Origin: Anthracocystis setariae
Taxonomy: Eukaryota; Basidiomycota; Ustilaginomycetes; Ustilaginales; Ustilaginaceae
NCBI GenBank assembly: GCA_928724745.1
Contig: CAKMXJ010000023.1
Span: 248,001-312,000 of the forward strand
DNA length: 64,000 nt
Reading direction: 5' to 3'
Below are positions 28,933 to 48,291 of this stretch, piece after piece (the first letter of the stretch is position 1; each line of letters begins with the position of its first letter). Under the pieces are notes generated by a model that worked only from the letters and a program-made list of their open reading frames with translations, was not told the DNA's origin and made no database searches. Both the position numbers and the translations under genes were made by a program.

Positions 28933-28937
28933 GTGAC

Positions 28938-30562: not shown

Positions 30563-30901
30563 TGTTATGCTCCTGGGGTCTTAGAACCTCGGAACGTGGC
30601 GGTGCGTCTGTGTCGAGGCCAGGGGCGTGGTACCGGGTGTTGCTCCCGGGATCGTTGCCAAGCTAGCGGAGCGGGTGAGCGGGAGATCGGGAGAAGGTCT
30701 GATATTTCCACCTACTAGAGTGAGTAAGCTAAAATACAATCGACGTCTTAACGTGAGCGTGGTGGAATCAGGACGTGGGATTATGTGGTCTCCCGGATAC
30801 CCCCCGGGAGATGCCGCAGTCTGCCCCGATCACCGATCCGGGGCTATATCGGGGGGAACTACCCCCGCCCATGTTAATACTAAGACCGAACACTAACTCT
30901 C
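30563..30901 (-). repeat. Element B 3' LTR, larger part (rest at 39527-39546)
   Basis: The first 339 plus-strand bases of the 359-bp LTR. The remaining 20 bases lie beyond element A at 39527-39546, after the duplicated CTCTC (39522-39526). Confidence 0.95.
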
Positions 30902-31407
30902 TGTTACAACTGGACAGATGTTCCCAGCCAGCGCGCCACCGGAACACTGGCCAAAGGCCGTGTAGGAGAGTGAGCGTGCCGCGCAGCATAAGCCATTAGG
31001 AGCGCGCCGCGCGGGACGTTCTGGGAATGGAGGGGCGCGCCGCGCGTCGCCCCCCGAAGACGGGAGCGCGCCGTGTAGTGCTCGACACAGGGGTCCACCC
31101 CAGGTGTCGCGAGTTGAGGTCGCGCGCGGCCCACGCGTCCCCGGAGGGGGCGCGCGCCGCGTGGCACGCATGATGCCTTATAAGGGGGAAAACCGCGCGC
31201 CGCCCTCCTGTAGTCCATCGTCGATTGTATTCTTAGTTACCTTGAGTAATAGCGAATATCAGACCCAACGGTAGAACCGTTAACCTCAGGATCGTGCCCG
31301 GTGACTCTCGTGGCCACCACTCCCGCCACGCGCCCTCAAGCCCAAGCCTCGCACACCGCGTGCCTCGCCGCACAGTCAGGAGGTTGTCAGACCCTTGGCG
31401 CTTAACA
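30902..31407 (+). repeat. Element A 5' LTR
   Basis: 506 bp, TGTTACAACT to GGCGCTTAACA. A TTATAA box at 31178-31183 lies about 40 bp before GTCGATTGTA (31220-31229), the inferred start of the transcript because it complements the PBS. The upstream U3 part is rich in GCGCGC palindromes. Confidence 0.97.
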
Positions 31408-31408
31408 T

Positions 31409-31418
31409 TACAATCGAC
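31409..31418 (+). other. Element A self-priming primer-binding site
   Basis: TACAATCGAC, starting one base after the 5' LTR, is the exact reverse complement of GTCGATTGTA at 31220-31229 in the LTR. It does not start with the TGG expected for a tRNA primer. In Tf1 the 5' end of the element mRNA pairs with such a site to prime reverse transcription; by analogy the same is inferred here. Confidence 0.8.
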
Positions 31419-31445
31419 CTACCCGTCACCCCGCACGCTCAAACA

Positions 31446-32549
31446 ATGCTCCCCATGCCGGTGACTCGCAGCCAGGTCGCCAACCAAAACCCCTTGGACG
31501 ACTGGTCCTCCGCCGGGGAAGACCCTCCCATGGTCGCCGCACCCTCCTCGGCGAGCGCGACCACCACCAACTCCCCCGCGCCCACCCCGGAGGCCGCCGT
31601 CCCGCTGATGGCGGTGCTCCAGGAGCAAATGGCCGTCCTACAGGAATTGGTCCTGGAGATGCGCGCGTTGCGCCGCGAGCAAAGGGGCCAACCACCCCCC
31701 GCGGCTACCCCCTCCCAGCGCTCGCCCAGGGCCGCCGAAGCGGAGCCCCCCAGAGAGGCTCCCAACCCGGTGACGGATCGCGAGACATCCGAGCAGCGCT
31801 ACGAGCGAGCCACCCGCCGGATGGAGCAGGACCCCCACCACGCCCGCGAGTCGCAGCCCGGGTACTCCCTCCCGGTCCCTCCTCTGGTGCCGTGGACCGC
31901 TCCCCTGGACGCGAGCCTCGACAAAGCTCCCGAACTCCGCATCGCTGCCCCCGACTGGGACGGTAAGCGGGAAGAGCTGGAGGCCTACATTGAGCAGTGC
32001 GAGCTGCACTTCGACCTCAACCCGGCACGCTTTGCCACAGACAACCGCCGGGTCCTCTGGGCCCTGGCACACGTGGGTGGCGCGCCTCGCGACCACCTGC
32101 GCAACATGCGCCAGGCGAGCCCCCACGACCCGATCTTCCACGACTGGCCGCGCTACTGCGGTTCCCTACGCCGCACGTACGGCGATCCTCACCCAGGACA
32201 TACGGCCAGGATGCAGCTGCAGAAGCTGCGTCAAACCGGGAGCGTCAGCCGCTTCGCTGCCGAGTTTCAGGCGCTGGCCACGCGAGCCAACGCTACCGAC
32301 AAGCAGCAGCTGCTCACTACGTTCCAGCTGGGACTCCGGGAGACGTTCCGGCGCCACCTCCTACATGTGCAGACCCACGACCTGCAGGAGTACATCAACG
32401 CTGCTGTACGCACCGAGCAGCAGATGCTCGAAACCGGCCTCGACTCGGCCGGAACCGCCCACATTCCGGGCCGCGCTACGGGCCGCAATGACGAGCGCCC
32501 CGACCGGAGCCCGGTACGACCCCGACGGGAGCCCCGACTGGTGGGCTGA
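31446..32549 (+). pseudogene. Element A gag (capsid), frame broken near its end
   Basis: Starts at ATG 31446 (MLPMPVTRSQ). After an Ala/Pro-rich N-terminus and a short coiled-coil-like stretch (EQMAVLQELVLEMRALRREQ) comes a Retrotrans_gag capsid domain (about 31920-32430) with the YGDPHPGHTARMQLQKLRQ block, closely matching the element B capsid. It forms the intracellular particle shell. The frame stops at 32547-32549, but coding similarity continues in a second frame (about 32540-32704). That frame holds the zinc-knuckle start CYTCGEKH, and a third frame follows from 32706. The first break lies between 32492 and 32545; the second falls at the (CG)3 run 32701-32706. In an intact relative gag and pol would be one frame, as in Tf1. 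Non-functional as assembled, unless the breaks are sequence errors. Confidence 0.88.
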
Positions 32550-32931
32550 ACGCCGCCCGCCCCGCCGCCGCCCCGGCCGCCGCGCGCCCAACTTTCCATG
32601 CTCCGGCCCGCGCCAACACGGCTTTGCAGAAGCTCACGGAGGACACACGCCGCTACCGGCGCGAGAACAACCTGTGCTACACCTGTGGCGAGAAGCACCT
32701 CGCGCGATTGCCCACAGGCCACGCAGGAGCGCGCGCTGCGCGCTAATGTCATTACGGTTGAGCCCACTACAGGCAACTACCTCCTGCCGCCCGAAGGAGA
32801 AGATCCCGCTTCAGACCACGCGCCTACCGAGTGCGACCCCCCGGCCGAAAGGGATGCCTACGACGAAGCGGTCTACGACCCCACCCTCGACCCCCTGGGT
32901 TTTGAGGACGCCCCTTTTCCCTCCGCGCGCG
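32550..32931 (+). pseudogene. Element A nucleocapsid/linker region with two frame breaks
   Basis: Bridges gag and protease. The zinc-knuckle half with its first two cysteines and histidine reads in one frame up to 32704, and the final cysteine plus an acidic linker (YDPTLDPLGFEDAPFPS) reads in another from 32706. The protease frame takes over at 32932, right after a (CG)4 run at 32924-32931. Comparison with element B shows the same segment order, which is how the frame changes were located. Confidence 0.75.
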
Positions 32932-35151
32932 GCCGTGGCTCAACTACTGACTCACCCCGATTGGTTCCCACTCCGCACGCATGTCGCCGCACTGGAACCC
33001 ATCGCGGAGCCATCTGTTCAGGGCGACCACATCCGTGTGAGTCGCCACCCCAGCATTCCGGCCTACGAGTGCTGGGTCACCATTGACCACCTGCGGGCGC
33101 GCGCTCTCATCGACGGCGGCGCTACCGCGTCCTTCGTGGCGAAGGATCTCCTCGAGGGCGCGGGCATCGACCTGCACGGGTTGGCCACTCCGGTTAAGAC
33201 AGCAACGTTTGACGCAGCCTCGGAGCCCATCACTCATACCTGCAGGGCAGCTGTGGGGCTGGCGGGCCTCACTGTCGCCGTCCACCACCGCTTCTTCGTG
33301 GCCCCGCGCATATCGAGCTACGACGCCATCTTAGGCTTGGACTGGATCGAGGCCACGCGCCCCGTCCTTGACTACGAGGCTCGCGCTATGCGATTTCCAC
33401 TGCCCGAGCAAGGCGAGCACGAGGCCGTGACGCCCCCGGCCGGGGCCATCCCCTCGCTGCCGTTTGCCGACAATACCGCCGAACACTGCGTCCTCGTCCA
33501 GGCGCACGCGGACGAGCTCGCCGCCGGACCATCGCCTAAGGACATCCCCGCTGCGTACCAGGAGTTTGCGGAGGTGTTCAACGAGGCCAACGCCGACATC
33601 CTGCCGCGCCCGCGCCCCCAGGACCACGAGATCAACCTCCTGCCGGGAGCCAAGATCCCACACGGGCCACTATACTCTCTGTCCGCACGCGAGCTCGACG
33701 AGCTCAAGAAGTACATTGACAAGATGCTCGCTATTGGGTTCATTCGGGAATCGCAGAGCCCCGCCGCGGCCCCTATCATCTTTGTACCTAAGAAAGACGG
33801 TCGCCTCCGACCATGTGTAGACTACCGCGCGCTCAACAGCGTGACCATCAAAGACAAATACCCCATACCCCTCATCGCCGAACACTTGGACTGCCTCGCG
33901 CGAGCGCGCGTCTTCACCAAACTCGACCTGAAGGGAGCGTACAACCTCCTCCGTATCAAGGAGGGGCACGAATGGAAAACGGCATTCCGCACGCGCTACG
34001 GTAGCTTCGAATACATGGTAATGCCATTCGGGCTGTGCAACGCGCCATCTACGTTCCAGCGCTTAATGAACCACATCCTGCACGACCTGCTCGACGTGTC
34101 CGTGGTGGTGTACCTGGACGACATCCTCGTGTTCTCCCGCGATCCCGCCGAGCACGACACCCACGTGCGCGAGGTACTCCGCCGGTTGCGCCATAACCAG
34201 CTGTATTGCGCTGCCGACAAGTGCGAATTTGGGGTCACCTCGGTGGAGTTCCTGGGCTACCGAGTCAGCCCGGCCGGCATCTCCATGGACCCGGCGAAGG
34301 TCGAGGCCGTAACTACCTGGCCGGCACCCACGACCATTCGTGACATCCAGGTATTCCTTGGCTTTGCCAACTTCTACCGACGATTCATCAAGCACTATTC
34401 GCGCGTGGCTCGCCCGCTCACAGACCGCCTCAAGGGCAAAGCAAGCGGGCGCATCTCCTTAGAGCCCTCCGAGCTGGCCGCATTCGAGACCCTCAAGCGC
34501 GCATTCACCACGGCTCCTATCCTGCAACATTTTGACCCAGCGCTGCCCACGGTAGTGGAAACCGACGCCAGCGACTACGTTGTGGCGGCCGTCCTGTCCC
34601 AATGGTACCCAATCAACCCCGCCACTACAACAGCGCCGCGCCCGAGCACGCACCGTCTCCACCCAGTGGCATATTGGTCACGGAAGATGCAACCCGCCGA
34701 GCGCAACTACGAGATCCACGATAAGGAGCTCCTGGCCATCGTCGACTCCCTTCAAGCGTGGCGCCACTACTTACACGGGCTGCACGCACCGTTTGATGTC
34801 CTCACGGACCACCAAGCTCTCCAGTACTTCCAAACCAAGCGCCAGCTCAATCGCCGTCAGGCCCGTTGGGGCATTGCCCTGGCAGAGTTCGCATTCTCCA
34901 TCACCTACCGCCCGGGCACAGAGGCCGCGCGGCCGGACGCTCTGTCACGCCGATCCGATGGTCACCCAAACCTAGCGGACGCCCAACGCCACGGCGACCC
35001 CGCTAATGTAGCTACCCTCTTGCCGCCCTCCCTGTTCATCCACCCCGAGACAACCGGCGTCGACCCCGTCGACTTCCCGCCCCGGCCGCGCGCCGCGCGC
35101 GCTCTCCTCCCCGGCGACCGTCCTTCCGGCCACCCCTTCCAGCGCGGCTGA
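32932..35151 (+). pseudogene. Element A pol: protease, reverse transcriptase, RNase H
   Basis: From 32932 the frame encodes a retropepsin (ALIDGGATASF), then reverse transcriptase (IFVPKKDGRLRPCVDYRALN, FTKLDLKGAYN, YMVMPFGLCNAPSTFQRLMN, catalytic YLDD at 34111-34122, FLGFANFYRRFI). RNase H follows (VVETDASDYVVAAVLSQW, then NYEIHDKELLAIVDSL and TDHQALQYF). All key catalytic aspartates are visible. The frame is lost at the (CG)4 run 35094-35101 and stops at 35151, while the integrase continues in the next frame. Upstream open codons back to 31990 are a gag shadow, so that apparent start is rejected. Confidence 0.9.
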
Positions 35152-36442
35152 CATCGCCGCCATTCTGTCCCGCTATCATGACCACCCCACCGCGGGGCAC
35201 CCCGGCGTGGCCACTACCACCGCGCTCGTCCGCCGCCACCACAGCTGGCCCACCCTTGCGCAAGATGTTGTCACCTACGTCGCCACCTGCTCTGCCTGCA
35301 AGCGCGCCAAAGCCCCGCGCCATAAACCTTATGGGCTGCTACTCCCGTTGGGCGCGCCCGACCGGCCGTTCGGGTCCATCTCCATGGATCACATCGAGGG
35401 CCTCCCGCGCTCGCGCGTGGGCGGCACACTCTTCGATTCCATCCTTGTAGTCGTAGACCGCCTCACCAAGTTTGTGATTTTCATCCCAGCACGGCAATCC
35501 GACACCGTTCCCGACCTCGCACGCATGCTCTTTACAAGTGTGTTTTGCTATTTTGGATTGCCTGACCAGATTGTCTCCGACCGCGGGCGCACTTTCATCG
35601 CCTCCCTCTGGCGAGCAGTGCTGCAACAACTCCAGGTCCGCCCGGCGCTATCCACCGCCTATCACCCTCAAACCGACGGCCAGACCGAGCGCACCAATCA
35701 AACCCTGGAGGTCTTTTTGCGCCTCTACGTCAACTACCAGCAAGATGACTGGGCCGCGTGGCTCCCGCACGCGCAGCTCGCCATCAACAACCGCCCCGCT
35801 GGCGCTACCGGTCTCCCATCCACCCTCCCCCTTTTCGGGTTTACGCCCAAAACGCTCCCGGGTTCCCCCGCGCTCGCCCCCGATGGTGCGCCACCCTCCC
35901 CGGCTTCCCTGCAAATGCTCATCGCGTTCTGCCAAGACAACATCGCGCGTGCCGCGCGCACCATGGCGAGCCTCGCAAACCGCTCCAGGACGGATCGGTC
36001 TTACACCGGGGGTGACCAAGTACTGCTGCGCACCAGACACCTGCGCCAGGACAGACCGTCCAAGAAGCTGTCCAACCCCCTCGCCGGACCATTTACGGTT
36101 CTAGAGGCCGTGGGCCAGCGCGCGTACAGGTTGGACCTGCCAGCAGGCTCCCGCGTTCACCCGGTGTTCCATGTGAGCTTGCTCGAGCCATACCCAGCGG
36201 GCGCGCGCCCCACGGAGCACGCGCCACAAGCCACCAACCTCCAAGACGACCGCCAAGACTTCGAGGTGGAACGACTGCTGGAGGCACGAACGAGCAGACG
36301 GGGCCTCGAGTACCAGGTCAAGTGGGCCGGTTATGACGAGCCCACATGGGAGCCGGCGCATCACCTCGCCAATAGCCAAGAGCTGGTGGACGAGTTCCAC
36401 AGGTCACACCCAGGAGCGCCCACGGGACGAAGGCAGGCCTGA
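35102..36442 (+). pseudogene. Element A integrase with C-terminal chromodomain
   Basis: Open from about 35102 to 36442. It encodes an HHCC zinc domain (AGHPGV, RRHHSWP, CSACKRAK), the catalytic core with D-D-E (SMDHIEG, VSDRGRTF, HPQTDGQTERTNQ), and a GPY/F-like domain (LAGPFTVLEAVGQRAYRLDL, HVSLLEPY). It ends in a chromodomain (about 36263-36400: EYQVKWAGYDEPTWEP), which in chromoviruses guides integration to marked chromatin. It is separated from RT-RNase H only by the frame change at 35094-35101 and has no start codon of its own in an expected place, so it is the downstream part of a broken gag-pol polyprotein. Confidence 0.9.
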
Positions 36443-36483
36443 CGGTGGCCGGGGGCAAGCGGCAACCTCATAATGCCGCGCGC

Positions 36484-36633
36484 TCCCTCAGGGCGAGCTC
36501 CTAACCCGCCTCGCGCCGTCCTACTCATGGCGCGCTCGCCACCCGTGTTGGCGCGCGCACCCCCAGAGCGAGCTCCCAACCCGCCTCGCGTCGTCTCGCT
36601 CACGGCGCGCTCGCCACCCTTGCGGGCGTGCCC
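36484..36633 (+). repeat. Two 75-bp imperfect tandem repeats between pol and antisense gene
   Basis: The words GCGAGCTCC.AACCCGCCTCGCG and GGCGCGCTCGCCACCC recur 75 bp apart (36493 and 36568 for the first). The repeat lies in the gap between the convergent 3' ends of pol and the antisense gene, so it may be part of their termination region. Confidence 0.7.
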
Positions 36634-36874
36634 GACACCCTTACACAGCCCCCCAACACCGCGCGGCTCACCAGAGATCCCGCAACCCCGCGCGCCACAG
36701 CACCCACTGGATCCCGCCATGCTCAAGCCTTACTTTTACTCAGACACGAACGCGAGGGCACAAGCACAACGACACGGGGAACATTTCGGATTTCAAGGCC
36801 GACTACGGGGTTACCGGAACCGGCCAACAGACATTGGAGTAACAGAGCAAGGGGCGCGCGGTACAACGAGAGAC

Positions 36875-38738
36875 TCAGGCCGGGCTCGCGCCTTCTCCAC
36901 CATCAGGGAGTGCTTGCCGGCGCGGACGCTTGGGCGTGCGAGGAGCCTCCGCCGCCAAGGGAGACGAGGGCGACGCGCGGCGCGCGGGCACCACAGCGAC
37001 GGGAGAGCCAGCGGCCGGGTGCGAGGCACCAGCCGGCGGCGCGTGGTCCAAGAGGCGCCCAACACGCTCGCGAGCGGCGGCAATGTGGGACGCGCTGTCC
37101 GAGTCCGACGAGTCCGAGGCCACCAGATACGCGGGACCGCTCACCCGCCAGTAGTCTACGAGCTCGTGCAGCGTCGTTCGCAGGGCAGCGGGCGTAGACT
37201 CCAGCATCATCAGGTGCCGCTTCATAGTGGACGACTGCACGTCCATACCCTCCAGCAGGCCAGCGGCGGCGCACTGCCGAATCGTAACCTTGAGGTCGTC
37301 GAGCGCGCGCTCGATAGCCTCCGTGCTGCGCTGGAGATGCACCGCCTGTTTCCGGTACGAAGCCGATGGCGCCGGCGGATTGGACACCAAGGACGACGAA
37401 CCCCCAGCGTCCTCGTCACGGTTACGCGGCGTCGCGCGAACGGTAGCGCTCACCCCCGGAAGGGCGCTGAGCGGCTTACGCGCAGCATTGCGGCGGGGAC
37501 GAGGGGCCTTGGGGGAGCCCAGAGGGCGGGGACGGTCGGCAGCGCGGCCTCGGGTGGTACGGGTAGCGCGGGGACTGGGAGTGGCGGGCTCGCGCCCCCC
37601 CTCCACAGACTCACCATCGCTCTCACTGCTCTCGTTGTCGTCGTCGTTGTCATCCCTGGTTCGACGGCTGGCACGCGGCCAGCGACGCCGGGCGTAGCGC
37701 TGTGCCACAGCGGCGCGCTCGGTCTCCATGTACGGCGGGAGCGCACCTACCGGCACCATCGACGGGGTCAGGGCGGGATTGGGACGATGGCCCAGAACGC
37801 GCATCCAGAGGTAGGCTTCCATCAGCCACGGGCCCTCAAGCCGATTCCCCAGCCACGGAATCCGGCCGCGCCAGTCGCACTTACGTTTCGTGCCGCACGC
37901 GCTGCAGGGCGTCGGCATGCCCTCGAAGGCTTGGGCGATCTCGTCGGGGATCCTGGCGCCGGCGTCGCGCCTGCCCGTCACTGCGCCACGCTCGGGATCC
38001 GCGTGGCACGCCGCGGCGTCGCAGCCCTTGTGCTCGCACGCGTAGCAGGGCGCCATGAACTCCTCGCAGTCGGGATCGCTAACTACCAGGGCGGCCTTGA
38101 TGAGACGTACGACGAAAGGGACATCGCCGATAGGCTGGTCCTTGCGCTCGCGCATCAAAGAGTCGACGATGGGGCAGCTCCGCTCGCCCCACGGCAGGAC
38201 CTCCCACACCTGGTAACGGAATTGGCTCTGGTCGGCCTGATCGCTGGTGGGAGAAGGCGCTCGATCGCGAGCCTCAGGGGAAGACTGACCGCGAGCCTCG
38301 GGGGAAGGAGCGCCGTCGCAGGCCTGGGGCGGCGGCGAAGAAGGGATTTCGATTACCGTAGCGCTTGTGGTTGCGGGTGCTGCCAGATAGTGGAACCCCG
38401 CCGGGAAAGTCAGAGTCAGTATGCGTGCCGCGTCAACACACCAAGGAAAGAGATCACTCACCGGTCTCCTCGGTCGGAGAGGCTGTGGATGGCGGGGCCC
38501 CGGTCACGGCTACCGCCGCGGGCGAGGCAGTGGTGTCGTTGGCCACCCGGGGGTCGGGGACCACGGCCAAGATCGCGCGGAGGGTGGACGCAGCCTCGGC
38601 CTCAGCGCGCGCTTTCTCACTTGAGGGCTTGTCGGCTAGCCAGGCACAGGAACGGGAAATTCAAAGTTACGCGTCAGTCAACACCTTACCGCCGGCGCCG
38701 TACCTCAGAACGTGCCCATACTCACTGTTGGAGGTCAT
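36875..38738 (-). CDS. Element A antisense gene: six-cysteine zinc-cluster-like protein, 3 exons
   Basis: Predicted join on the minus strand: 38726-38738, 38462-38635, 36875-38379, giving 563 residues. Exon phases agree and both introns (90 and 82 nt) have GTGAGT donors and TAG/CAG acceptors. The frame of exon 3 alone is open for over 500 codons. Central cysteines: CYACEHKGCDAAAC, then CSACGTKRKCDW, followed by a block shared with the element B antisense gene (GRIPW...EG..LMEAYL, GHRPNP, then LPPYMETE). This spacing is reminiscent of fungal Zn2Cys6 clusters with a long linker. The rest is Ser/Pro/Arg-rich and disordered-looking, with an acidic DDNDDDNESSESD tract and a basic TPKRPRRQ possible nuclear signal. 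The gene is convergent with pol. Function unknown; DNA or RNA binding is inference. Introns in this direction survive transposition because the packaged RNA is the opposite strand. Confidence 0.82.
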
Positions 38739-39002
38739 GGTCGTCCAGTTTTCTTGGTGACCCAGCGTGGGGGTCGAGGGGTAGTCGGATGGTGGAGAGA
38801 AGCAGAAAGGTAGACCCCCGTAAGTCAGCCATTGCGAGCCGCAACACCCCAAATGAGGCTGAGCCCCATTGCGCAACGCTTTGTGTGCGCCCGGTGATCG
38901 ACGCGTGCGCTCGCGCCACGCCCCACAAATGGAAAATTCTGGGGACCACTTTCGCCCACCACGGCCGGTGGGCCTGCGCGCTCCGGAGTGCGCGCACCCC
39001 GA

Positions 39003-39015
39003 GGCGGGGGGGTAA
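39003..39015 (+). other. Element A polypurine tract
   Basis: GGCGGGGGGGTAA directly before the 3' LTR (39016), the expected plus-strand primer position. Element B has the same G-run plus TAA arrangement. Confidence 0.8.
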
Positions 39016-39521
39016 TGTTACAACTGGACAGATGTTCCCAGCCAGCGCGCCACCGGAACACTGGCCAAAGGCCGTGTAGGAGAGTGAGCGTGCCGCGCAG
39101 CATAAGCCATTAGGAGCGCGCCGCGCGGGACGTTCTGGGAATGGAGGGGCGCGCCGCGCGTCGCCCCCCGAAGACGGGAGCGCGCCGTGTAGTGCTCGAC
39201 ACAGGGGTCCACCCCAGGTGTCGCGAGTTGAGGTCGCGCGCGGCCCACGCGTCCCCGGAGGGGGCGCGCGCCGCGTGGCACGCATGATGCCTTATAAGGG
39301 GGAAAACCGCGCGCCGCCCTCCTGTAGTCCATCGTCGATTGTATTCTTAGTTACCTTGAGTAATAGCGAATATCAGACCCAACGGTAGAACCGTTAACCT
39401 CAGGATCGTGCCCGGTGACTCTCGTGGCCACCACTCCCGCCACGCGCCCTCAAGCCCAAGCCTCGCACACCGCGTGCCTCGCCGCACAGTCAGGAGGTTG
39501 TCAGACCCTTGGCGCTTAACA
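39016..39521 (+). repeat. Element A 3' LTR
   Basis: 506 bp; I saw no difference from the 5' LTR when reading them side by side. Followed by the CTCTC duplication and the rest of the element B LTR. Confidence 0.97.
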
Positions 39522-39546
39522 CTCTCCCGATATCCCAATCGTAACA

Positions 39547-39562
39547 TTACCCCCCCCCCCCG
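39547..39562 (-). other. Element B polypurine tract
   Basis: On the plus strand TTA followed by twelve C (39550-39561). In the element's direction this is a G12 run plus TAA directly before the 3' LTR (39546 downward). Confidence 0.8.
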
Positions 39563-39747
39563 GGAAGGCCGACGTCCTCGTGGCCTGCTAGGTACTCCCG
39601 GGTCTTAAGCTTCGCCCGGGAGGCTCCCGGACCCACCACGCGTGGTCCGCGCTGAAAACAAAGGGACCAGGAACGAACGCTTTGTGTGCCTGGCGGGGCG
39701 TGCGCGGCGGAGCGTGCGCAGCGGGCTGAGCGCTAACTTCTCTTTTG

Positions 39748-39754
39748 TATATAA
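39748..39754 (+). promoter_or_regulatory. TATA box of element B antisense gene
   Basis: TATATAA, 81 bp before the ATG at 39835, followed by a C/T-rich initiator-like stretch (about 39760-39830). It drives transcription away from the 3' LTR, antisense to the retrotransposon mRNA. Inferred from sequence and position. Confidence 0.65.
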
Positions 39755-39834
39755 GACTCGCCTCGCTCCCGTTCCTGGTTCCTTCCCTTCCCCCACAACC
39801 TCGTTCCTCGACGCCCGGAACATTATTTCCCTCA

Positions 39835-41760
39835 AGATGCCTGGTAAGTACCGTCCGGGACCCGGGAGGCGGGTTAAGAACATGTGCTGACGTTCTCTTC
39901 TTTTTGCTTTTACCGCAACAGCAACAAGATCCTCCACCCGGCGAGGTGGCTCCGGCGCTGGGGTGTCGGGAGGCTCTGCCCCCGCCCCCGGCGACAACAA
40001 TGACGTGGACGAGTCCCGGGGCGTTGGTGCCCCGGAGGTAGTGGACGAGTCCCGGGGTGTGAATGCCCCGGAGGTTGTGGATGAGTCGGGTCACTATGTG
40101 GCCCAAGAGGGAGACGTAGTCTCCCTGTACGTGGACGAGTCCCCCCGTGCTCCCGCAAGGGGAAGCTGACCCCGATTTGGTCCCGGGTGTCAGGGGTGTG
40201 GACGAGTCCCCGGCGCAGGCTTCGGCCTCGCACCGGGAAGATAGGCAAAGGGCTCCCGGTCCCCCGGACAATGGCTCCGGCAGCGTGGTGGTCCCCCCTA
40301 GTGGGGCTACCCCCGGGTCCTCGAACGTGGCCGCCCCGACTCCCGGGCGTGGCGTACCGATCGGGGATCCCGGTAGGCTGGCGGAGCTGGTCCGGGAGGT
40401 GAGAGCGCGGGGTGCCCCTCCTGCTTCGGAGGGGTACGGGCAGTGCTGGTCTTGCGCAAATAGCAAGAAGAAGCCGCACCCGCAATGCTCCCTGGGGTTC
40501 GCTCACCGGGACGTCGGGGGTCCGGAGGACCCCCGGGACGGTCAGCCTGCCGCGTGTGAGAGGTGCCATGTCGCGGGGTATCCCTGTGACTGGCAGGGGC
40601 GCGTCCCGGACATTACGGGACGCCAGGAGGGTGGCTTCCTCATGGAGGCTTATCTCACCCTCCGGGCCCGGGGTCAACGTCCGAACCCCGGGATGCCCTT
40701 CACCTCGTTCTCCGCGGCCGACCTCCCGGACTACCTGGCGGCCGAGTACGCCCCCGCGCGTGCTCGGTACGAGGCTCGGCGTCAAGCCAAAGCGGGAAGT
40801 CGTCCCCGGGCTCCCGAGTCTCCCGCTGGGCCGTCTACCGGTGGGGGCGGCACTGCCCCGGGCTCCCGGCCCCCTCGGGGTCAACGGGGGTGGAAACAAA
40901 CCACCCTCATCCCCGACGCTCCCTTGGCCCTGCGCCAGGTTTGTCCCTTCGATGCTCCGGGGGACCAACATATGGCCGGGGCCCGGGAGGCAGCATCCCA
41001 CGCGGCGGGAGTTATTGCCGCGCTGGTGCAGGTCCTTCGCCGGACCGCTGCTGTTGGGGCTGAGCGTCGCCTGGAGTGGTCCTCCCGGGACGAGAGCATC
41101 CTCCGTTACCTGGAGGGTGTGAGTGGTGCTTTCGAGAGCATCACCCGGGAGCTTGGCGTCCCGCTCCCTCCCCCGCCCCCCGTGGTGCCTGTGCCTGCCC
41201 CTGTCCCTGTCCCGGCTCCCGCCCCTGCCCCTCACCTTGTGGCGGCTCCCCGGCGACCCAACGCCGAAGCTGGGCCGTCTCGCCCCCGGGGTTCTCCTCT
41301 TCCGGGTTATACCCCGGCAACCCCGGAGATGGCCCGTGCCAAAAGGCAGGGTCCCGGGACGCCATCGCGGGAACGCGCTCCCCGGGCGAGTGGCTCCCGG
41401 CCTCAGACGGGGGGAAAGCGCCCCCCTCAGACGGGGGGTAAGCGCCTCCCGGGGAGCTTCCAAACGGGCGGGAAGCGTCTCCCGGTGGGTGGGCTCCGCC
41501 CTCCCTCTCCCGAACCGGAGAGGCGTGCCCAGCGCCGCCGTGCTCAGGCGGTGGTGCGGGACATGCGGGCCCCGATCCGTGCCCGTCGTCGGGGCAGCTC
41601 CCGGGACAACTCCCCGGGCGACTCCCGCGACGAGGAGTCCTCGGGGGCGGAGGAACGCAGCCGGGAGTCCGGGGAGGACTCCGACGAGGATGTGGTGATG
41701 GTGGACTCGGACGTATACGAGTCCCGTCCCCGCACCCCTCCTCGTAAGAAACGGAGGTAG
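39835..41760 (+). CDS. Element B antisense gene: zinc-cluster-like protein, 2 exons, one frame slip
   Basis: Exon 1 is only 7 nt (39835-39841, ATGCCTG), followed by an 80-nt intron with a GTAAGT donor and a pyrimidine-rich ACAG acceptor at 39921. Exon 2 runs 39922-41760 but changes frame at the C6 run 40141-40146, where a single extra C accounts for the shift. Before and after it the same VDES motif recurs (five copies), showing the two frames belong together. The second frame gives 537 residues: six cysteines (CWSC...C, CERCHVAGYPCDW), the block EGGFLMEAYL, GQRPNPG, LPDYLAAEY shared with element A, a proline-rich stretch, repeated QTGGKR units, and an acidic then basic end (SGEDSDEDVVMVDSD, PPRKKRR, a likely nuclear signal). 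Convergent with pol (gap 339 bp). Function unknown. Confidence 0.78.
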
Positions 41761-41842
41761 GAGCCCGGGAGTTCGGTCTGGTCGTGTGTCCGGGGTCATT
41801 AGGACCCCGGGAATGAAATTGTGTTTACCTCGAGTTCCCGCG

Positions 41843-41892
41843 TGTTGTGTGTGTGTGTGTGTGTGAGAGAGTGAGAGTGAGGGTGAGAGTGT
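41843..41892. repeat. (GT)n/(GA)n microsatellite between antisense gene and pol of element B
   Basis: A GT tract passes into GAGAGTGAGAGTGAG-type repeats. It lies in the 339-bp gap between the convergent 3' ends. Confidence 0.8.
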
Positions 41893-42099
41893 GTCGGTGA
41901 GCCTTCTGTCCCCTGGGCGTGGTGGCCGGGTCAAGGGAACACCCGGGGCAAACTGCGTTTGGCGGGATGCATAACTCCCGACCGCAGTCCCGCTTCCCGG
42001 ATCGGACCACTTCGTTCCCCGTTCCCTTGCTGATGCTTCCCAGGGTGACCTCGCTGGCCGCCCTCGCGCTGGGTTCCGAGGGGCGGGGGCGACCGGGAG

Positions 42100-45000
42100 T
42101 CAGCAGTCCCGGGAGCTAACTTGGCTCCCGGACTGCCGCCGATGGAATTCCTGGAGCAACTCCTGGCTATTCTCTAGGTGAGCCGCTGGCTCCCACGTAG
42201 GTTGGGTGTAGCCTGCCCACTTCACCCGGTACTGCCGCCCCCGACGTGTCTCCCGGGAAGCCACAATATCTTCCACTTCGAAGTCCTGTCGGTCGTCCTC
42301 CAGGCGCCGGGACGTCGGGGCGTGCTCGGAGGGCCGGGTGTCCGGGGAGTGCGGTTCCAGGAGGCTGACGTGAAACACCGGGTGGATTTTCCAGGCGGGC
42401 GGGAGGTCCAACTTGTAAGCCCGGGAGCCTACCGCCTGGAGGACACGAAACGGTCCCGCTAACGGATTCCCTAGCTTCCGGGATGGTCGATCTTGACGCA
42501 GATGTCGGGTGCGGAGTAGCACCATGTCACCCCCGGAAAAAGACCGGTCCATCCTGGAGCGGTTTGCGTATCTAGACATCAGGGTGGCAGCGTGGTTAAT
42601 GTTGGTCCGGCAGTGTTGGAGGAGTCCCCGGAAAGCCAAATCGGAGGGCGGGATGCCATCCGGGGAAAGGGCTGGTGACCCGGGGAGGGTTTTCGGGGTG
42701 AAACCAAACAGGGGTAGGGTGGCCGGTAGCCCGGTAGTAGCTGACATTCTATTGTTTAGCGTAAGTTGGGCGTACGGTAACCAGGACGCCCAGTCGTCCT
42801 GCTGGTAGTTGACATAGAATCGGAGGAAAACCTCTAGATTTTGGTTAACACGCTCGGTTTGGCCATCTGTCTGGGGGTGATAGGCTGTGGAGAGGGCCGG
42901 GGTGGTCCCGAGGGCTGTTAAGATATCCTTCCACAGGGACGCTACAAAAGTGCGCCCCCGGTCCGACACGATGGCGTCCGGGAGTCCAAAATAGGCAAAA
43001 ACGCGGGAGAACAGCATGTGGGCAAGATCTTTGGCCGTATCGGACTTCCGGGCCGGGAGGAAAAGGGAGTACTTGGTGAGACGATCGACGACGACGAGGA
43101 TGGAGTCGAACGTGAGACCACCGACCCGGGAAACCGGGAGACCCTCAATATGGTCCATCGTGATGGTCCCGAACGGCCGGGTCGGGGCGTCGAGCGGGAG
43201 CAGCAGTCCGTAAGGCTTATGCCGGGGCGCTTTAGCGCGCTTACAGGCTCCACAGGTCCGAACGTATTCTGTGACATCGTGCTTGAGATTGGGCCAGGAA
43301 TGATGACGACGGACCAGTTCCAGGGTAGCGGCCACTCCCGGGTGTCCCGCCGTCGGGTGGTCGTGATAGCGCTCTAGGATTCGTTTCACTTCGGCGGGGG
43401 ACGCGGGGCTGGTCGGGAGCGGGTCGGGGCCCGGGGCTACGTCAGATACCCGGTGCGCGGCCGGGGTTCGTTGTGCCGCCAGCCCGGAATCTTGGAACAG
43501 GTGAGGGGGTAGGAGGACCGCGACGTTAGCGGGGTCATGCTGATGGTTGGTAGTGGTGGTGTTGGGATGACCATCGGAGCGCCGGGACAGAGCGTCCGGG
43601 CGGGTTGCCTGGGTCCCGGGTCGGTACGTAATGGTAAACGTGAATTCCCCGAGAGCCATGCTCCACCGGGCCTGCCGCCTGTTAAGTTGCCGTTTCGTTT
43701 GGAAATATTGGAGGGCCTGGTGGTCGGTGAGCACCTCAAACGGCTCCTGGAGCCCGTGGAGGTAATGTCTCCATTCCTGCAACGCATCTACGATTGCTAG
43801 GAGTTCTTTATCGTGGATTTCGTAATTACGCTCTGCGGGTTGCATCTTTCGCGACCAATAGGCTACCGGATGGAGCCGGTGGGTCGAGGGCCGGGGTACG
43901 GCCTCGGGGTCGGTCCCCGGGGCGGCGTACCACTGTGAGAGTACGGCAGCCACGACGTAATCGCTAGCATCTGTTTCGATCACTGTGAGCCGGGAAGGGT
44001 CGAAGTGTTGTAGGATTGGGGCGGTAGTGAAGGCTTCTTTGAGTCGGGTGAAAGCCTCCCGCTCCCGGGGCTCCAGGTTGATCTTACCGGAGGCCTTGTT
44101 CTTAAGCCGATCGGTGAGCGGGGACGCCACCCGGGAGTAGTGCCGGATGAAGCGGCGATAGAAGTTGGCAAACCCTAGAAAGACCTGGATGTCCCGGATG
44201 GTGACCGGTTCTGGCCAGGACGACACCGCGTCCACCTTACCGGGGTCCATGCTGATCCCCCCGGGACTGACCCGGTACCCGAGGAACTCGACAGACGAGG
44301 TCCCGAAGTCGCATTTTCCCGGGGCACAGTACAGCTTGTGGTCCCGGAGACGTCCCAACACCTCCCGGACGTGAGAGGTGTGTTCTGCGGGGTCGGCGGA
44401 AAATATGAGGATATCATCCAAATACACTATTACGGTGACATCCAAGAGGTCGTGGAGAACGTGGTTCATAAGACGCTGGAAAGTGGACGGGGCGTTACAT
44501 AGTCCAAAGGGCATAACTAAGTATTCGTAGCTCCCGTACCTGGTCCGGAAGGCTGTTTTCCATTCGTCGCCCTCCGCGATGCGGACAAGATTGTAGGCCC
44601 CCTTAAGATCCAATTTCGTGTAAATCTTAGCCCGGGAGAGGCAGTCCAGGTGCTCGGAGATCAGGGGAATCGGATACTTGTCTTTGACGGTGATGCTGTT
44701 GAGGGCCCGGTAGTCGACGCAAAGGCGGAGTTTGCCATCTTTCTTCGGGACGAAGATGATAGGGGCGGCTGCCGGGCTCTTGGACGGCCGGATGAACCCT
44801 ATCTCAAGCATCTTATCAAGATAGGCCTTAAGCTCCTCCATTTCTCTCCCGGAGAGGGAGTATAGTGCGCCATGTGGGATCTGGGCTCCGGGGAGGAGGT
44901 TAATCTGGTGGTCGTGAGGCCGGCGAGGCGGGAGCACATCGGCGTTGGCCTCATTGAACACGTCCGAGAAGTCCCGGTACTCTTCCGGGAGGCCTGGGGC

Positions 45001-45770
45001 CCGGGATGGCTCCAAGGAGCTGGGGTGGATAGCGAAACAGTTCTCCCCCGGGACGGGATCCTGTCCATTGGTAAGCAGCGGGGGGCCGGTAGGTTGAACC
45101 GGGGTGGTGGCATAACCCCCTCCTCCCGGGAGCGGGAAGTGCATGGTTTGGGTTTGATAATTGAGTACCGGTTCGGTCTTCTCAATCCAATCCATTCCGA
45201 GGATGATATCATAGTCGGAGATGCGGGGTGCGACATAGAATTGATGATTCAGGGTAACCGGGACGCCCGCAAGGCTGACCGATGCCCGGAGAGCGTGGGT
45301 AATAGCCTCTGAGCGGGAATCGAAGGTTGCTGTACGTACCGGGGCCCGGAGGGCCTCCGGGACGCCCACCTCCCAATCCAGCATGGCCCTGTCCACAAAA
45401 GAAGCGGTGGCGCCCCCGTCGATTAGGGCCCGGGCACGGCACCCGGCCAGCGTGACCCAGCACTCATACACCGGGATGCTGGGGTGTCGGTGTACCCGGA
45501 TGGTGTCCCCGCTGATCACCGGCTCGGCGGGGGGGATGAGGGCCGCTACATGGCTCCTGAGATCCACGAGCCCCGGGTCCTGGCGAAGTTGGGCGATGTT
45601 GGCCCTCACCGGGAGAGTCTGAGGGTGGTCGGTGAACTCGGGGTCCCACTCCGGGTCATAGGAAAGGACGGAGCGGTCATCGGGTAGGTCATCCTCGCCG
45701 TTGGTAGGTGTGGCTTCGTCCTCACCGGACCACCGGGTCTCCGGGACGTCCGGGACCAGGGGTTGGACCA
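42100..45770 (-). CDS. Element B pol: protease, RT, RNase H, integrase, chromodomain
   Basis: One uninterrupted frame on the minus strand. Its open codons reach back to 45957, but coding similarity begins at the frame change 45770-45774, so pol is fused to or shifted from gag rather than having its own start. Domains in order: retropepsin (ALIDGGATASF), RT (FVPKKDGKLRLCVDYRALN, catalytic YLDD near 44414-44425), RNase H (VIETDASDYVVAAV), integrase zinc finger (HPGVAATLELVRRHHSWP, CGACKRAK), D-D-E core (TMDHIEGLP, VSDRGRTF, HPQTDGQTERVNQ), GPY/F-like domain (LAGPFRVLQAVG), chromodomain (QYRVKWAGYTQPTWEP). No internal stop and all catalytic acids are present. Strong similarity throughout to element A pol. 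Likely competent for enzyme activity if gag-pol is expressed. Confidence 0.94.
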
Positions 45771-46987
45771 AAAAGCTCGCCGTTGGCGGGGTCCAGGATG
45801 GCCACGTTGGCCCGGAGGGGCCGAGTCTGGGCGGCCTTTGGGCAGTCCCGGACTGCGTGAGGGCCCCCGCACCCGTAGCAGAGGTTGTTTTCCCGACGGT
45901 ACTTGCGGACCTCGTCGGGAAGCTCCCGGCTGGCCAGCCCGGGGCGGGGCGGGTCACCCCGCTTGTTGGGGGTCTCGCGACGGGGTACCATCGGATTGGG
46001 TGGGCGACCGCCCCGAAGTTCGGGACGGCGTTCCGGGCGACCCGGGGGGTCCGAGTGACCCGGGGTCACCAAGCCGATTTCGTACATTCGCTGCTCGGTT
46101 CGGATAGCGGTGTCAATGTACTCGTGCAGGTCGTGGGTCTCCACGTGGAGGAGCTTCTGCCGGAGGCTCTCCCGGAGGCTAAGCTGGAAGGTAGTCAACA
46201 ATTGCTGATTGTCGGTAGCGTTAGCCTTAGTGGCTAGGGCCAGGAACTCGGCAGCGTGAGCGCTAACGCTTCCCGATTGACGCAACCGCTGGAGCTTGAC
46301 CCGGGCGGTGTGTCCCGGGTTGGGATCCCCATAGGTGCGGCGAAGATCGGCACAGAACGTATCCCATTTGTGGAACAGGTTGATTTCCGGGCGGGCCTGG
46401 CGCAGGTTGCGGAGTCGCTCCCGGGGTACACCCGAAATATGGGCTAGGGCCCATAAGACACGGCGGGGGTCGGAGGGGAAGCGTGCCGGGTTAAGATCGA
46501 AATGGAGGGTGCATTGTTCGATGAAAGCCTCCAGCTCGTCGCGCTTACCGTCCCAGGAAGGGGCGGCAACGCTAACTTCCGGGGTCTTGACCCGGGAGGA
46601 GTAGTCCTCCGTAAGGTCCCAGTTGGTAGCTACGACGGGAGCTCCCGGGGGTACCGGCTGGGGATTGGCCTCGCGCTCGCCCATAAGGCGAGTAGCGCGG
46701 GCGTACCGTTCTTCCGAGGTCTCGCGTTCCGGAGAAAGGTCTCCCGGATGCCCCATGGGCGGGAGGCTAGGTTCTGCCGGGATCGGGACGGCGGCGTCGG
46801 GGGCTCGACCACCGTTGAGCAGCCGGATCTGGTCGGCCAATCCTCCGACCAGGGCGGTTAGGCTCTGCACGGCGGCGACTAGCCCCTGGACGGGGTCGCC
46901 TCCTGAATCGGGACTTTCGGGGGTAGGGCTGCCCGAACTCGTAACAGAGTCCGGGGAGCCGGGACGAGGCTGGCTACAGGTTTGCAT
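45722..46987 (-). CDS. Element B gag (capsid and nucleocapsid)
   Basis: 421 residues from ATG 46987 (MQTCSQPRPG). Disordered N-terminus, a possible short coiled coil, capsid domain (about residues 150-300; FIEQCTLHFDLNPARF, YGDPNPGHTARVKLQRLRQ), then a single zinc knuckle CYGCGGPHAVRDC, which is CX2CX3HX4C, one residue shorter than the usual CX2CX4HX4C. The frame passes the T5 run (plus 45770-45774) and stops 16 codons later. Pol is read in the +1 frame from that run. Either a programmed +1 shift or a one-base indel in a Tf1-like single frame would explain it. Gag coats the RNA and forms the particle. Confidence 0.9.
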   Translation of the reverse strand: MQTCSQPRPGSPDSVTSSGSPTPESPDSGGDPVQGLVAAVQSLTALVGGLADQIRLLNGGRAPDAAVPIPAEPSLPPMGHPGDLSPERETSEERYARATRLMGEREANPQPVPPGAPVVATNWDLTEDYSSRVKTPEVSVAAPSWDGKRDELEAFIEQCTLHFDLNPARFPSDPRRVLWALAHISGVPRERLRNLRQARPEINLFHKWDTFCADLRRTYGDPNPGHTARVKLQRLRQSGSVSAHAAEFLALATKANATDNQQLLTTFQLSLRESLRQKLLHVETHDLHEYIDTAIRTEQRMYEIGLVTPGHSDPPGRPERRPELRGGRPPNPMVPRRETPNKRGDPPRPGLASRELPDEVRKYRRENNLCYGCGGPHAVRDCPKAAQTRPLRANVAILDPANGELFGPTPGPGRPGDPVVR

Positions 46988-47023
46988 AGTAGCTGGGGTC
47001 TCCGCGTTGATGGCAACGGGGAG

Positions 47024-47033
47024 GTCGATTGTA
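47024..47033 (-). other. Element B self-priming primer-binding site
   Basis: On the minus strand TACAATCGAC just inside the 5' LTR, exactly complementary to GTCGATTGTA of the LTR (plus 47207-47216). Identical in sequence and offset to element A even though the LTRs otherwise differ. Confidence 0.8.
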
Positions 47034-47034
47034 A

Positions 47035-47393
47035 TGTTATGCTCCTGGGGTCTTAGAACCTCGGAACGTGGCGGTGCGTCTGTGTCGAGGCCAGGGGCGT
47101 GGTACCGGGTGTTGCTCCCGGGATCGTTGCCAAGCTAGCGGAGTGGGTGAGCGGGAGATCGGGAGAAGGTCTGATATTTCCACCTACTAGAGTGAGTAAG
47201 CTAAAATACAATCGACGTCTTAACGTGAGCGTGGTGGAATCAGGACGTGGGATTATGTGGTCTCCCGGATACCCCCCGGGAGATGCCGCAGTCTGCCCCG
47301 ATCACCGATCCGGGGCTATATCGGGGGGAACTACCCCCGCCCATGTTAATACTAAGACCGAACACTAACTCTCCCGATATCCCAATCGTAACA
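47035..47393 (-). repeat. Element B 5' LTR
   Basis: 359 bp with TG...CA ends (on the plus strand TGTTATGCTCC to TCGTAACA). It differs from the split 3' LTR at one position noticed. On the minus strand it holds GTCGATTGTA (plus 47207-47216), which complements the PBS just inside the LTR and so marks the probable 5' end of the transcript. Confidence 0.95.
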
Positions 47394-47992
47394 TTATCAC
47401 GCTTCGGAGACCCTTACTGTACTTGTCCTTTGGTGGAAGATGTTTTAACCGCCAGTTCCATCGGTCTCTGTGCAGTCACCTTTTGTATATTGCCGATCGG
47501 GGAGATGTAACCCCAGTCGCCCGTACGCTAATCATTTTTCTAGCAATCAGGAGGTGGTGCGAAAACTGCCTAATGTTGTTGTTGTAGCCTGTCACCGCCG
47601 CCACAAACATCGCAAAAAAGTTAATATTCGTCTTGCAGCCACCGAATCGTTCCGTTTTTAGCAATAATGTGGTTTTCTTTTTCATGCGACATTAGATGCG
47701 GACCCCAGAATAACTCGTAAAAAAAACTAAGTAAAATTAGTCCGCGAAAGCCAGGACCCACGGCTGCTTACATGGCTCCGGTGATGGATTCTTGCTGTTC
47801 TCACGTCATGGATCCACCCGGGGTTGCTTGAGAGGGTTCGCGGTCGTAGTTTTCCCATTTTCTACGACGTGATCTATATCGTAATAAGCGGAAAAGTTGC
47901 GTCCCCGAACCCACTAGAAACCACCCGGGACGGGTCAGTGGTGTTAGAAATCATAAATTCGGTATATCGGCGATTGGGGTTACATCTTATTA
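47394..47992. other. AT-rich spacer with degenerate MITE ends
   Basis: No gene. Two partial M1-family ends lie tail to tail at 47833-47872 and 47877-47912 (GGGTTCGCGGTCGTAG ... and GTAATAAGCGGAAAAGTTG ...). A partial M2-family end is at 47949-47983 (GGTATATCGGCGATTGGGGT). The first five bases (TTATC) are the element B target duplication. Confidence 0.55.
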
Positions 47993-48107: not shown

Positions 48108-48291
48108 TCACATCGTAAAAAACGGAAAGTTGAGTCCGCGAACCCACCCCCTCACCCACCCGGGTTGGGTTCACTGCGAACCCACCCGGGGTGGCTCGGG
48201 GGTGGTTCCGGGGTGTAACCCCCCCAGCAACCACCCCGGGTGGGTGACAGGGTGGGTTCGCGGACTCAACTTTCCGCTTTTTACGATGTGA
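48108..48291. mobile_element. MITE-like foldback element M1 with 42-bp TIRs
   Basis: 184 bp. The left TIR 48108-48149 (starting TCACATCGTAAAAAACGG) and the right TIR 48250-48291 are inverted copies with one mismatch. The centre is GC-rich and itself partly palindromic (ACCACCCGGGGTGG-type words). No coding capacity. Partial relatives at 47833-47912 and 49661-49702. Confidence 0.88.

What the first reader, a model, noticed from the sequence alone, without database searches (positions are those of the whole stretch)
36875..41760. Two chromoviruses share an antisense, intron-containing zinc-cluster gene next to the 3' LTR
Elements A and B each carry an extra gene between pol and the 3' LTR on the strand opposite to gag-pol. 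The proteins (563 residues in A; 537 plus an N-terminal piece in B) share six cysteines and a block with EG..LMEAYL..R..G.RPNP and LP.Y...E. Both ATGs lie about 280 bp inside the 3' LTR (278 bp in A, 289 bp in B), both genes have a tiny first exon (13 and 7 nt), and both converge on pol. The LTRs of the two elements differ, so the gene has been kept through divergence, which implies selection. Antisense accessory frames are known in some plant Ty3 elements. I know of no description of a spliced zinc-cluster one in fungal chromoviruses, but I could not search. Possible roles: controlling element transcription, host silencing, or targeting.
Basis: partly seen in the sequence, partly recalled or inferred. 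Interest (0 to 1): 0.92.

Follow-up and report, generated by a model that had tools for sequence, protein, structure and literature searches.

The report
Antisense zinc-cluster gene in fungal retrotransposons
Four lineages of jumping genes in one fungal genome each carry an extra gene read backwards from the rest, coding for a cysteine-rich protein that selection has preserved in the three lineages tested, and which may recognise short DNA words packed into its own element.

Summary
Both Ty3 chromoviruses in the window carry a gene with conserved splice sites between pol and the 3' LTR, on the strand opposite gag-pol; A is nested in B's 3' LTR. The window's B copy is frame-broken, but 21 of 30 B copies and 11 of 17 A copies examined are intact. 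Genome-wide, 18 of 23 A-type and 36 of 40 B-type gene loci lie within 1 kb of an opposite-strand pol. Two further lineages (pol 42-47% identical to A) carry antisense genes with a similar six-cysteine layout; two more distant Ty3 elements sampled do not. dN/dS is 0.16 (A), 0.22 (B) and 0.26 (C, one pair), lowest in the antisense gene's frame. Unexpectedly, B is packed with TCCCGG (88 against 18 expected), A's non-coding DNA with GCGCGC; B's word survives divergence better than most words. I propose a nuclear DNA-binding protein acting on its own family, like plant VANC. DNA binding, expression and function are untested. Antisense genes in Ty3 elements are a known kind; this is a new variant.

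The parts
38726..38738 (-). Gene A exon 1 (13 nt, ATG at 38738)
   Evidence: ATG in 17 of 17 copies and donor GTRAGT in 17 of 17
38636..38725 (-). Gene A intron 1
   Evidence: GTRAGT donor 17/17, TAG or CAG acceptor 17/17
38462..38635 (-). Gene A exon 2
   Evidence: Joined frame open in 11 of 17 copies
38380..38461 (-). Gene A intron 2
   Evidence: GTRAGT donor 17/17, CAG acceptor 17/17
36875..38379 (-). Gene A exon 3, with six-cysteine cluster (37877-38047) and LMEAYL..RPNP block (37775-37837)
39748..39755 (+). TATA-like box TATATAAG of gene B, inside the element and outside the LTR
   Evidence: TATATAAG 22, TATATAAA 4, CATATAAG 3 of 30 copies; 1 unrelated
39837..39843 (+). Gene B exon 1 (7 nt)
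   Evidence: ATG in 29 of 30 copies
39844..39921 (+). Gene B intron
   Evidence: GTRRGT donor 29/30, CAG acceptor 29/30; intron body only 63% identical between 7 representatives
39922..41760 (+). Gene B exon 2, frame-broken in this copy; six-cysteine cluster 40444-40587, LMEAYL..RPNP block 40627-40689
   Evidence: intact in 21 of 30 copies
30902..31407 (+). Element A 5' LTR
39016..39521 (+). Element A 3' LTR
31408..36442 (+). Element A gag-pol region
   Evidence: ORFs; its 35207-36439 frame has 102 matches in the genome
47035..47393 (-). Element B 5' LTR
30563..30901 (-). Element B 3' LTR, first part (interrupted by element A)
39527..39546 (-). Element B 3' LTR, last part
42100..45957 (-). Element B pol: protease, RT, RNase H, integrase, chromodomain
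   Evidence: Pfam matches
45722..46987 (-). Element B gag
   Evidence: PF03732 E 7e-8
39522..47397 (.). TCCCGG/CCCGGG word field of element B (88 and 55 occurrences)

Best explanation
This is an accessory gene carried through a chromodomain Ty3 clade. Shown: a protein-coding gene lies antisense between pol and the 3' LTR, its reading frame is under purifying selection (lineages A, B and C; D not tested), and in B a conserved TATA box lies between the 3' LTR and the ATG. Inferred: it is transcribed only from the integrated DNA copy. The introns survive retrotransposition because the element's genomic RNA is the other strand, where these splice sites do not exist. Inferred: the basic protein with six cysteines (C-x2-C-x4-10-C ... 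C-x2-C-x5-7-C) folds as a zinc cluster, enters the nucleus and binds DNA of its own family in trans. Most speculative: its sites are the lineage-specific words dense in the element (TCCCGG in B, GCGCGC-type in A), and binding regulates or protects the family's chromatin (autoregulation or anti-silencing, as for plant VANC). Confidence by step: selected antisense coding gene about 0.97; nuclear DNA-binding protein about 0.6; acting on its own element through these words about 0.3.
For: Gene beside opposite-strand pol within 1 kb: A 18/23, B 36/40, C 22/29, D 3/3 (paired by eye). Intact frames 11/17 A, 21/30 B. dN/dS median 0.160 (42 of 55 A pairs) and 0.216 (179 of 210 B pairs); pN/pS 0.03-0.11 in the most conserved core blocks; C exon 1 0.26 (one pair). 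Six-frame control (4 A and 7 B copies): gene frame 0.18/0.21 without stops; other frames 1.39 or more, except the mirror frame sharing third positions (0.26/0.32), which holds 10-14 stops per pair; pol about 0.09. ATG, splice sites and B TATA box conserved. pI 8.3-9.7 in three proteins. Words: CCGGGA (= TCCCGG) 88 against 17.8, maximum 30 in 100 dinucleotide shuffles; above all 300 codon shuffles in B pol, gag and two gene copies; joint top word in B non-coding DNA, 14 against 1.1; 75% kept between 7 B subfamily copies against 51% for same-GC words; 98 of 100 listed paired sites (157 genome-wide, reversed-pattern control 6) fall in B elements. GCGCGC in A 52 against 16.
Against: No Pfam, PDB or protein-database match supports a DNA-binding fold. 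The AlphaFold model is poor (pLDDT 57; zinc part below 50) and gave no Foldseek hit at E <= 0.001. The C and D samples show no word as dense as B's or A's, so the word code is not general on this evidence. In non-coding DNA B's words are kept better than only 70-86% of common same-GC words, so they are not exceptional there. In gene A GCGCGC is not above codon shuffles (P 0.19), though it is in the A pol-frame ORF (P 0.007). Homology between A/B and C/D is marginal (hhalign probability 14, 22 columns); C and D match each other by blastp in a set of eight sequences but did not retrieve each other in whole-genome searches except one weak fragment. In C the mirror frame is nearly as low (0.29, with 7 stops). 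Unlike VANC targets, B's word also fills coding sequence. No transcript or binding data.
Confidence: 0.5

Rival explanations
1. The antisense transcript itself is the functional product (dsRNA or transcriptional interference against gag-pol), and the protein is incidental.
For: The gene converges on pol, so read-through would be antisense to pol; PMC7264820 discusses antisense RNA as a possible regulator.
Against: Purifying selection acts on amino acids: pN/pS 0.03-0.11 in the core blocks; frames intact in 32 of 47 copies; the B intron body diverges while its splice sites stay.
Confidence: 0.1
2. The protein is a post-transcriptional or replication accessory (RNA export, particle assembly, nuclear import of cDNA) rather than a DNA-binding regulator.
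For: Cysteine clusters can bind RNA (recalled); PMC10309623 (title and start of abstract seen in listings) reports a C. elegans LTR element protein needed for export of its genomic RNA; PMC7264820 suggests roles like those of retroviral accessory proteins.
Against: It would not explain lineage-specific words throughout B, including the LTR and spacers.
Confidence: 0.25
3. The word enrichment has nothing to do with the protein: it reflects a mutational or composition bias, host-factor sites, or spread by recombination between copies.
For: The C and D samples lack a comparable word; the word is in coding and non-coding DNA alike; gene and pol histories differ between copies, which suggests recombination.
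Against: A and B live in the same genome at similar GC with different words; a general bias would hit both. The excess over codon shuffles and over order-2 Markov counts (88 against 25.7) is hard to get from composition.
Confidence: 0.35
4. A captured host transcription-factor gene that is merely a passenger.
For: The genome has 78 PF00172 zinc-cluster matches, so sources exist. Some gene loci have no pol within 1 kb (5 of 23 A, 4 of 40 B, 7 of 29 C).
Against: Five of those loci (4 A, 1 B) were checked and are pieces of elements: L010, L012 and L033 carry the A LTR, L023 is the other part of the copy in L033, L066 carries B LTR sequence. Searches with gene A and B (E <= 0.001), a B core piece (E <= 10) and gene D (E <= 1) showed no clear free-standing host relative. 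No Pfam match.
Confidence: 0.07

Closest known systems
Plant antisense accessory ORFs between pol and 3' LTR (Grande gene23, RIRE2, Retand ORF4, PvRetro13)
   Same: Ty3 element; gene between pol and 3' LTR; antisense; in most copies; promoter upstream of the gene in Grande; nuclear product in Grande (PMC7264820, text parts 1 and 2 of 3 read)
   Different: Retand type carries TRP28 (PF04195) in non-chromoviruses (PMC11963269, passages); here no Pfam match, six-cysteine layout, predicted introns, fungal chromoviruses
brtn of Boty elements (Botrytis cinerea)
   Same: Antisense extra gene in a fungal Ty3 element (title of Zhao et al. 2011 in the reference list of PMC8365987, and text of PMC7264820; the paper itself not read)
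   Different: Not known from what I read whether brtn has cysteine clusters, introns or a matching word; its sequence was not compared
VANC proteins of Arabidopsis VANDAL transposons
   Same: Element-encoded; VANC binds a short motif dense in its own element family and rare in others (PMC5735166, abstract and passages); B's TCCCGG is distributed in that way
   Different: DNA transposon; motif mainly in tandem repeats of non-coding DNA, whereas B's word also fills coding DNA; no homology tested; binding and anti-silencing untested here
HBZ-type antisense genes of deltaretroviruses
   Same: Antisense protein gene; nuclear protein (mentioned in PMC11963269, passages)
   Different: In HTLV the antisense promoter is in the 3' LTR (PMC7264820); here the TATA box of B lies outside it; no sequence comparison made
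Fungal Zn2Cys6 transcription factors (PF00172)
   Same: Two C-x2-C-x-C half-clusters with basic residues (Zn2Cys6 signature recalled)
   Different: Middle loop longer (18-38 residues); no Pfam match in A, B, C or D

Membership tests
Ty3 chromovirus (elements A and B) | RT, RNase H, integrase and chromodomain in pol; LTRs; 5-bp target duplication | tested here: met
   B pol matches PF00078, PF17917, PF00665 and PF00385; LTRs and duplications of both; A pol was not scanned itself but is 71% identical to B in its C-terminal part
Antisense accessory ORF (aORF-3R) of Ty3 elements | Gene between pol and 3' LTR, antisense, in most copies of the family | tested here: met
Antisense accessory ORF (aORF-3R) of Ty3 elements | Transcribed from its own promoter | tested here: inconclusive
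   Conserved TATA box and splice sites in B; no clear TATA seen for A; no RNA data
Retand-type TRP28 protein | PF04195 domain | tested here: not met
   No Pfam family at E <= 1 for A and B, none at E <= 10 for C and D
brtn of Boty | Sequence homology to brtn | not tested
   I did not have the brtn sequence and did not look for it beyond the papers
Zn2Cys6 binuclear cluster (PF00172) | Match to the Pfam profile | tested here: not met
Zn2Cys6 binuclear cluster (PF00172) | Six cysteines as C-x2-C-x6-C-x5-12-C-x2-C-x6-8-C (recalled) | tested here: not met
   Six cysteines are invariant in A and B and present in C and D, but the middle loop is too long in all four lineages and A and B differ in other spacings too
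VANC-like anti-silencing system | Short motif dense in own family and rare elsewhere | tested here: met
   B. Only partly for A; not seen in the C and D samples
VANC-like anti-silencing system | Protein binds the motif and removes silencing | not testable with these tools
   Needs EMSA/DAP-seq and chromatin data
Env-like third ORF | Sense orientation | tested here: not met
   Genes A and B in the window are antisense to their pol; the 79 loci paired within 1 kb were paired by requiring the opposite strand, so same-strand pairs were not counted

The most novel reading that the evidence does not exclude
Fungal chromoviruses carry their own antisense, spliced transcription-factor-like gene, whose product recognises a private DNA word (TCCCGG for B, GCGCGC-type for A) multiplied across the element, letting each lineage mark, regulate or unsilence only its own copies. 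It would be a protein-and-word code in LTR retrotransposons analogous to VANC in plant DNA transposons.
Probability: 0.25. Interest if true: 0.88.

Novelty: new variant of a known kind. Interest (0 to 1): 0.72.

Why it matters
The function of antisense accessory genes in Ty3 elements is an open question; PMC7264820 says it is not known. Here one genome holds 95 merged gene loci, fragments included, in four lineages, with intact copies, graded divergence, conserved introns and a candidate binding word, so the question becomes a direct binding test. The antisense arrangement also gives a simple reason why introns can persist inside a retrotransposon.

Tried and rejected
The sense-strand ORF of 868 aa opposite gene A (36473-39079) as the real gene: rejected, because the nearly open opposite-strand frame gives dN/dS 1.40.

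Search for relatives in other organisms: nothing at E <= 0.001 among the 7990 candidates scored in each search of 5.8 billion proteins with A, with an A+B alignment or with a C+D alignment, and nothing in viral contigs. Absence elsewhere is therefore not shown. PDB profile search: none. Structure: low confidence, no significant fold match, not used.

Max-order Markov ranking of words did not show the word, because it absorbs sub-words; dinucleotide, order-2 and codon-shuffle nulls were used instead. The reversed-pattern control for GCGCGC (113 and 108 against 107 and 103) is not usable, as the word is near-palindromic.

Exon boundaries were off by one base and were corrected; only one search is used.

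Selection tests used intact copies only (6 of 17 A and 9 of 30 B copies dropped); 17 of 23 A loci and 30 of 40 B loci were aligned; the six-frame test used 4 of 11 A and 7 of 21 B intact copies; gene-against-pol comparison used 36 of 55 A and 190 of 210 B pairs.
Full report
What is there. Element A (+ strand, LTRs 30902-31407 and 39016-39521, identical) is inserted in the 3' LTR of element B (- strand, LTRs 47035-47393 and 30563-30901 plus 39527-39546), each with its 5-bp target duplication (CTCTC and TTATC). B pol carries protease, RT, RNase H, integrase and chromodomain. Both elements appear self-primed: the 10 bases GTCGATTGTA of the LTR are complementary to the bases just after it (the self-priming model is recalled).

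The antisense genes. Gene A reads 38738 to 36875 on the - strand in three exons; gene B reads 39837 to 41760 on the + strand with a 7-nt first exon. In 17 A copies the ATG, both GTRAGT donors and both acceptors are present in 17 of 17; in 30 B copies the ATG, donor and CAG acceptor are present in 29 of 30 and a TATA-like box in 29 of 30. The B intron body is only 63% identical between seven representatives, against 90% for a core exon stretch. Joined frames are intact in 11 of 17 A and 21 of 30 B copies. The window's own B copy is not intact: its frame meets a stop at codon 85.

Genome survey. Similarity searches merge into 23 A-type and 40 B-type gene loci, fragments included; 18 and 36 of them have an opposite-strand pol within 1 kb of the gene's stop. 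Of the nine without, five were looked at: L010 is an intact gene in a copy that has the 3' LTR but has lost nearly all of the 5' LTR and gag-pol; L012 is truncated inside the gene but has the LTR; L023 and L033 are two parts of one split copy; L066 is a truncated B copy. The other four, all fragments of under 1 kb, were not looked at. Conversely one pol of this class, at C27:84643, has no detected gene; the other unpaired A/B-class pol hits look like second parts of interrupted pols (by eye). Reading the region after pol in a more distant lineage (C, pol 44% identical to A) showed another antisense gene, with a predicted intron inside its first cysteine half-cluster. It has 29 merged loci, 22 of them within 1 kb of an opposite-strand pol. 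A fourth lineage (D, pol 43-47%) has a single-exon antisense gene of 611 aa in three copies, all beside such pols (pairing made by eye). Two C-class pols, C18:250266 and C6:877553 (the latter at a contig end), remain unpaired.

Relatedness. A and B proteins are clearly homologous (3.6e-14 genome-wide). C and D match over 197 aa at 31% (E about 1e-15, but in a set of eight sequences); genome-wide searches with C exon 1 and with D did not retrieve each other except one weak fragment, the C core being split by its intron. A/B against C/D is marginal. All four share six cysteines as two C-x2-C-x-C half-clusters, the position and the orientation. In C and D the ATG lies about 145 bp from the apparent LTR end (read by eye). 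The regions after pol of two elements from more distant pol groups (33% identical to A or B) showed no such ORF in the ORF lists, but host-type genes (PEMT, Sec6) within 2.5 kb. So on this sample the gene belongs to a sub-clade of the Ty3 elements in this genome.

Selection. Nei-Gojobori dN/dS has median 0.160 over 42 of 55 A pairs and 0.216 over 179 of 210 B pairs (pairs with dS between 0.1 and 2); pN/pS falls to 0.03-0.11 in the most conserved core blocks and rises to 0.4-0.65 in the N-terminal parts. The same DNA read in the other frames gives 1.39 or more, except the mirror frame on the opposite strand that shares third positions (0.26 and 0.32), which carries 10-14 stops per pair. The C-terminal part of pol gives 0.09 in both families. 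C exon 1 gives 0.26 in the one pair available, with the mirror frame at 0.29 and 7 stops. D was not tested. This excludes neutral drift for A and B and argues against a purely RNA-level role.

Exchange. Gene and pol dS disagree for many pairs: L047 against L048 is 0.086 in the gene and 0.504 in pol; L015 against L022 is 0.484 and 0.104. In B this suggests recombination between subfamilies, with gene and pol moving as separate modules; in A unequal rates would also explain it.

The words. While reading B I noticed recurring TCCCGGG. In 7,876 bp of element B CCGGGA/TCCCGG occurs 88 times against 17.8 expected (100 dinucleotide shuffles, maximum 30) and CCCGGG 55 against 15.8; in eight host zinc-cluster loci (25 kb) CCCGGG occurs 0 times. 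Codon shuffles that keep protein and codon usage never reach the B counts of CCGGGA in pol, gag or two copies of the antisense gene (300 each). Element A, at similar GC, has TCCCGG at about chance (6 against 7.1), and instead has GCGCGC 52 times against 16, densest in the LTR and the pol-gene spacer. In non-coding DNA alone TCCCGG is joint top word of B (14 against 1.1) and GCGCGC the top word of A (17 against 1.5), each absent from the other's non-coding DNA. Between B subfamilies CCGGGA sites are kept in 75% of comparisons against 51% for same-GC words, 98th percentile of 186 common words; in non-coding DNA it is 74% against 43% but only the 77th percentile of 57. Of 157 paired sites in the genome (reversed-pattern control 6), 98 of the 100 listed lie in B elements; because copies share ancestry this counts as one family, not 98 events. 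Against a general rule: the C and D samples (3.0 and 2.5 kb) have no such word, and in gene A GCGCGC is not above codon shuffles, though it is in the A ORF 31990-35151 that holds much of pol.

Mechanism. The simplest account is a basic nuclear protein made from integrated copies, recognising its own family. Splicing is no burden to the element, because its genomic RNA is the opposite strand (inference). The VANC system is the nearest functional parallel: a protein whose short motif is dense in its own family and rare elsewhere (PMC5735166, abstract and passages). Whether the product represses, activates or unsilences cannot be told from sequence.

What is known. Antisense ORFs between pol and the 3' LTR are known in plants, with unknown function, and in Boty of Botrytis as brtn (PMC7264820, parts 1 and 2 of 3 read; PMC8365987, passages). 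Retand elements have TRP28 antisense proteins that probably can bind DNA (PMC11963269, passages). PMC2864245, a survey of fungal chromoviruses (passages only), mentions an additional ORF of unknown function in a figure legend; 'antisense' has 0 occurrences in its main text. Nine answered searches of the held library, seen as listings that show only the top papers, showed no report of a spliced, cysteine-cluster antisense gene in fungal Ty3 elements; subscription journals are mostly not held, so this is weak evidence of novelty.

Verdict. It is a new variant of a known kind of accessory gene, with a testable and possibly surprising DNA-recognition hypothesis. On checking, several facts were mended (C-D homology weaker genome-wide, frame-control figures, orphan loci examined); none moved a probability.

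Noticed in passing
window 30563-47393: Element A is nested in the 3' LTR of element B, with 5-bp target duplications for both; the near-identical LTR pairs (100% and 99.7%) suggest both are young insertions.
   Followed up: yes
window 28157-28661: Inverted LTR copy related to A (97% identical) with further partial LTR copies at 27951-28145 and 28662-28936: an A-family remnant.
   Followed up: no
window 29296-30060: ORF with a weak DDE_Tnp_4 (PF13359) match just under its cut-off, a possible DNA-transposon remnant; it overlaps a stretch (29093-29454) 83-87% similar to B LTR sequence in inverted orientation.
   Followed up: no
window 36473-39079 (+): An 868-aa open frame opposite gene A that is open without being selected; the high GC content of the region probably keeps it open.
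   Followed up: yes
L047/L048, L015/L022, L040: Antisense gene and pol of the same copies have discordant divergence, suggesting recombination between subfamilies.
   Followed up: partly
L010 (G000:C28:1301335-1305915): An A copy with an intact antisense gene and a 3' LTR, but only about 51 bp of the other LTR and no gag-pol: a deletion derivative keeping just the accessory gene.
   Followed up: partly
G000:C18:230808-251498: A C-type gene and a C-type pol about 18 kb apart with a D element's gene and pol between them, apparently a nested insertion.
   Followed up: no
window 48108-48291: Inverted repeat of 61-bp arms with 62 bp between them, MITE-like.
   Followed up: no
window 41846-41890: GT/GA-rich simple repeat between gene B and pol, near the converging 3' ends.
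   Followed up: no
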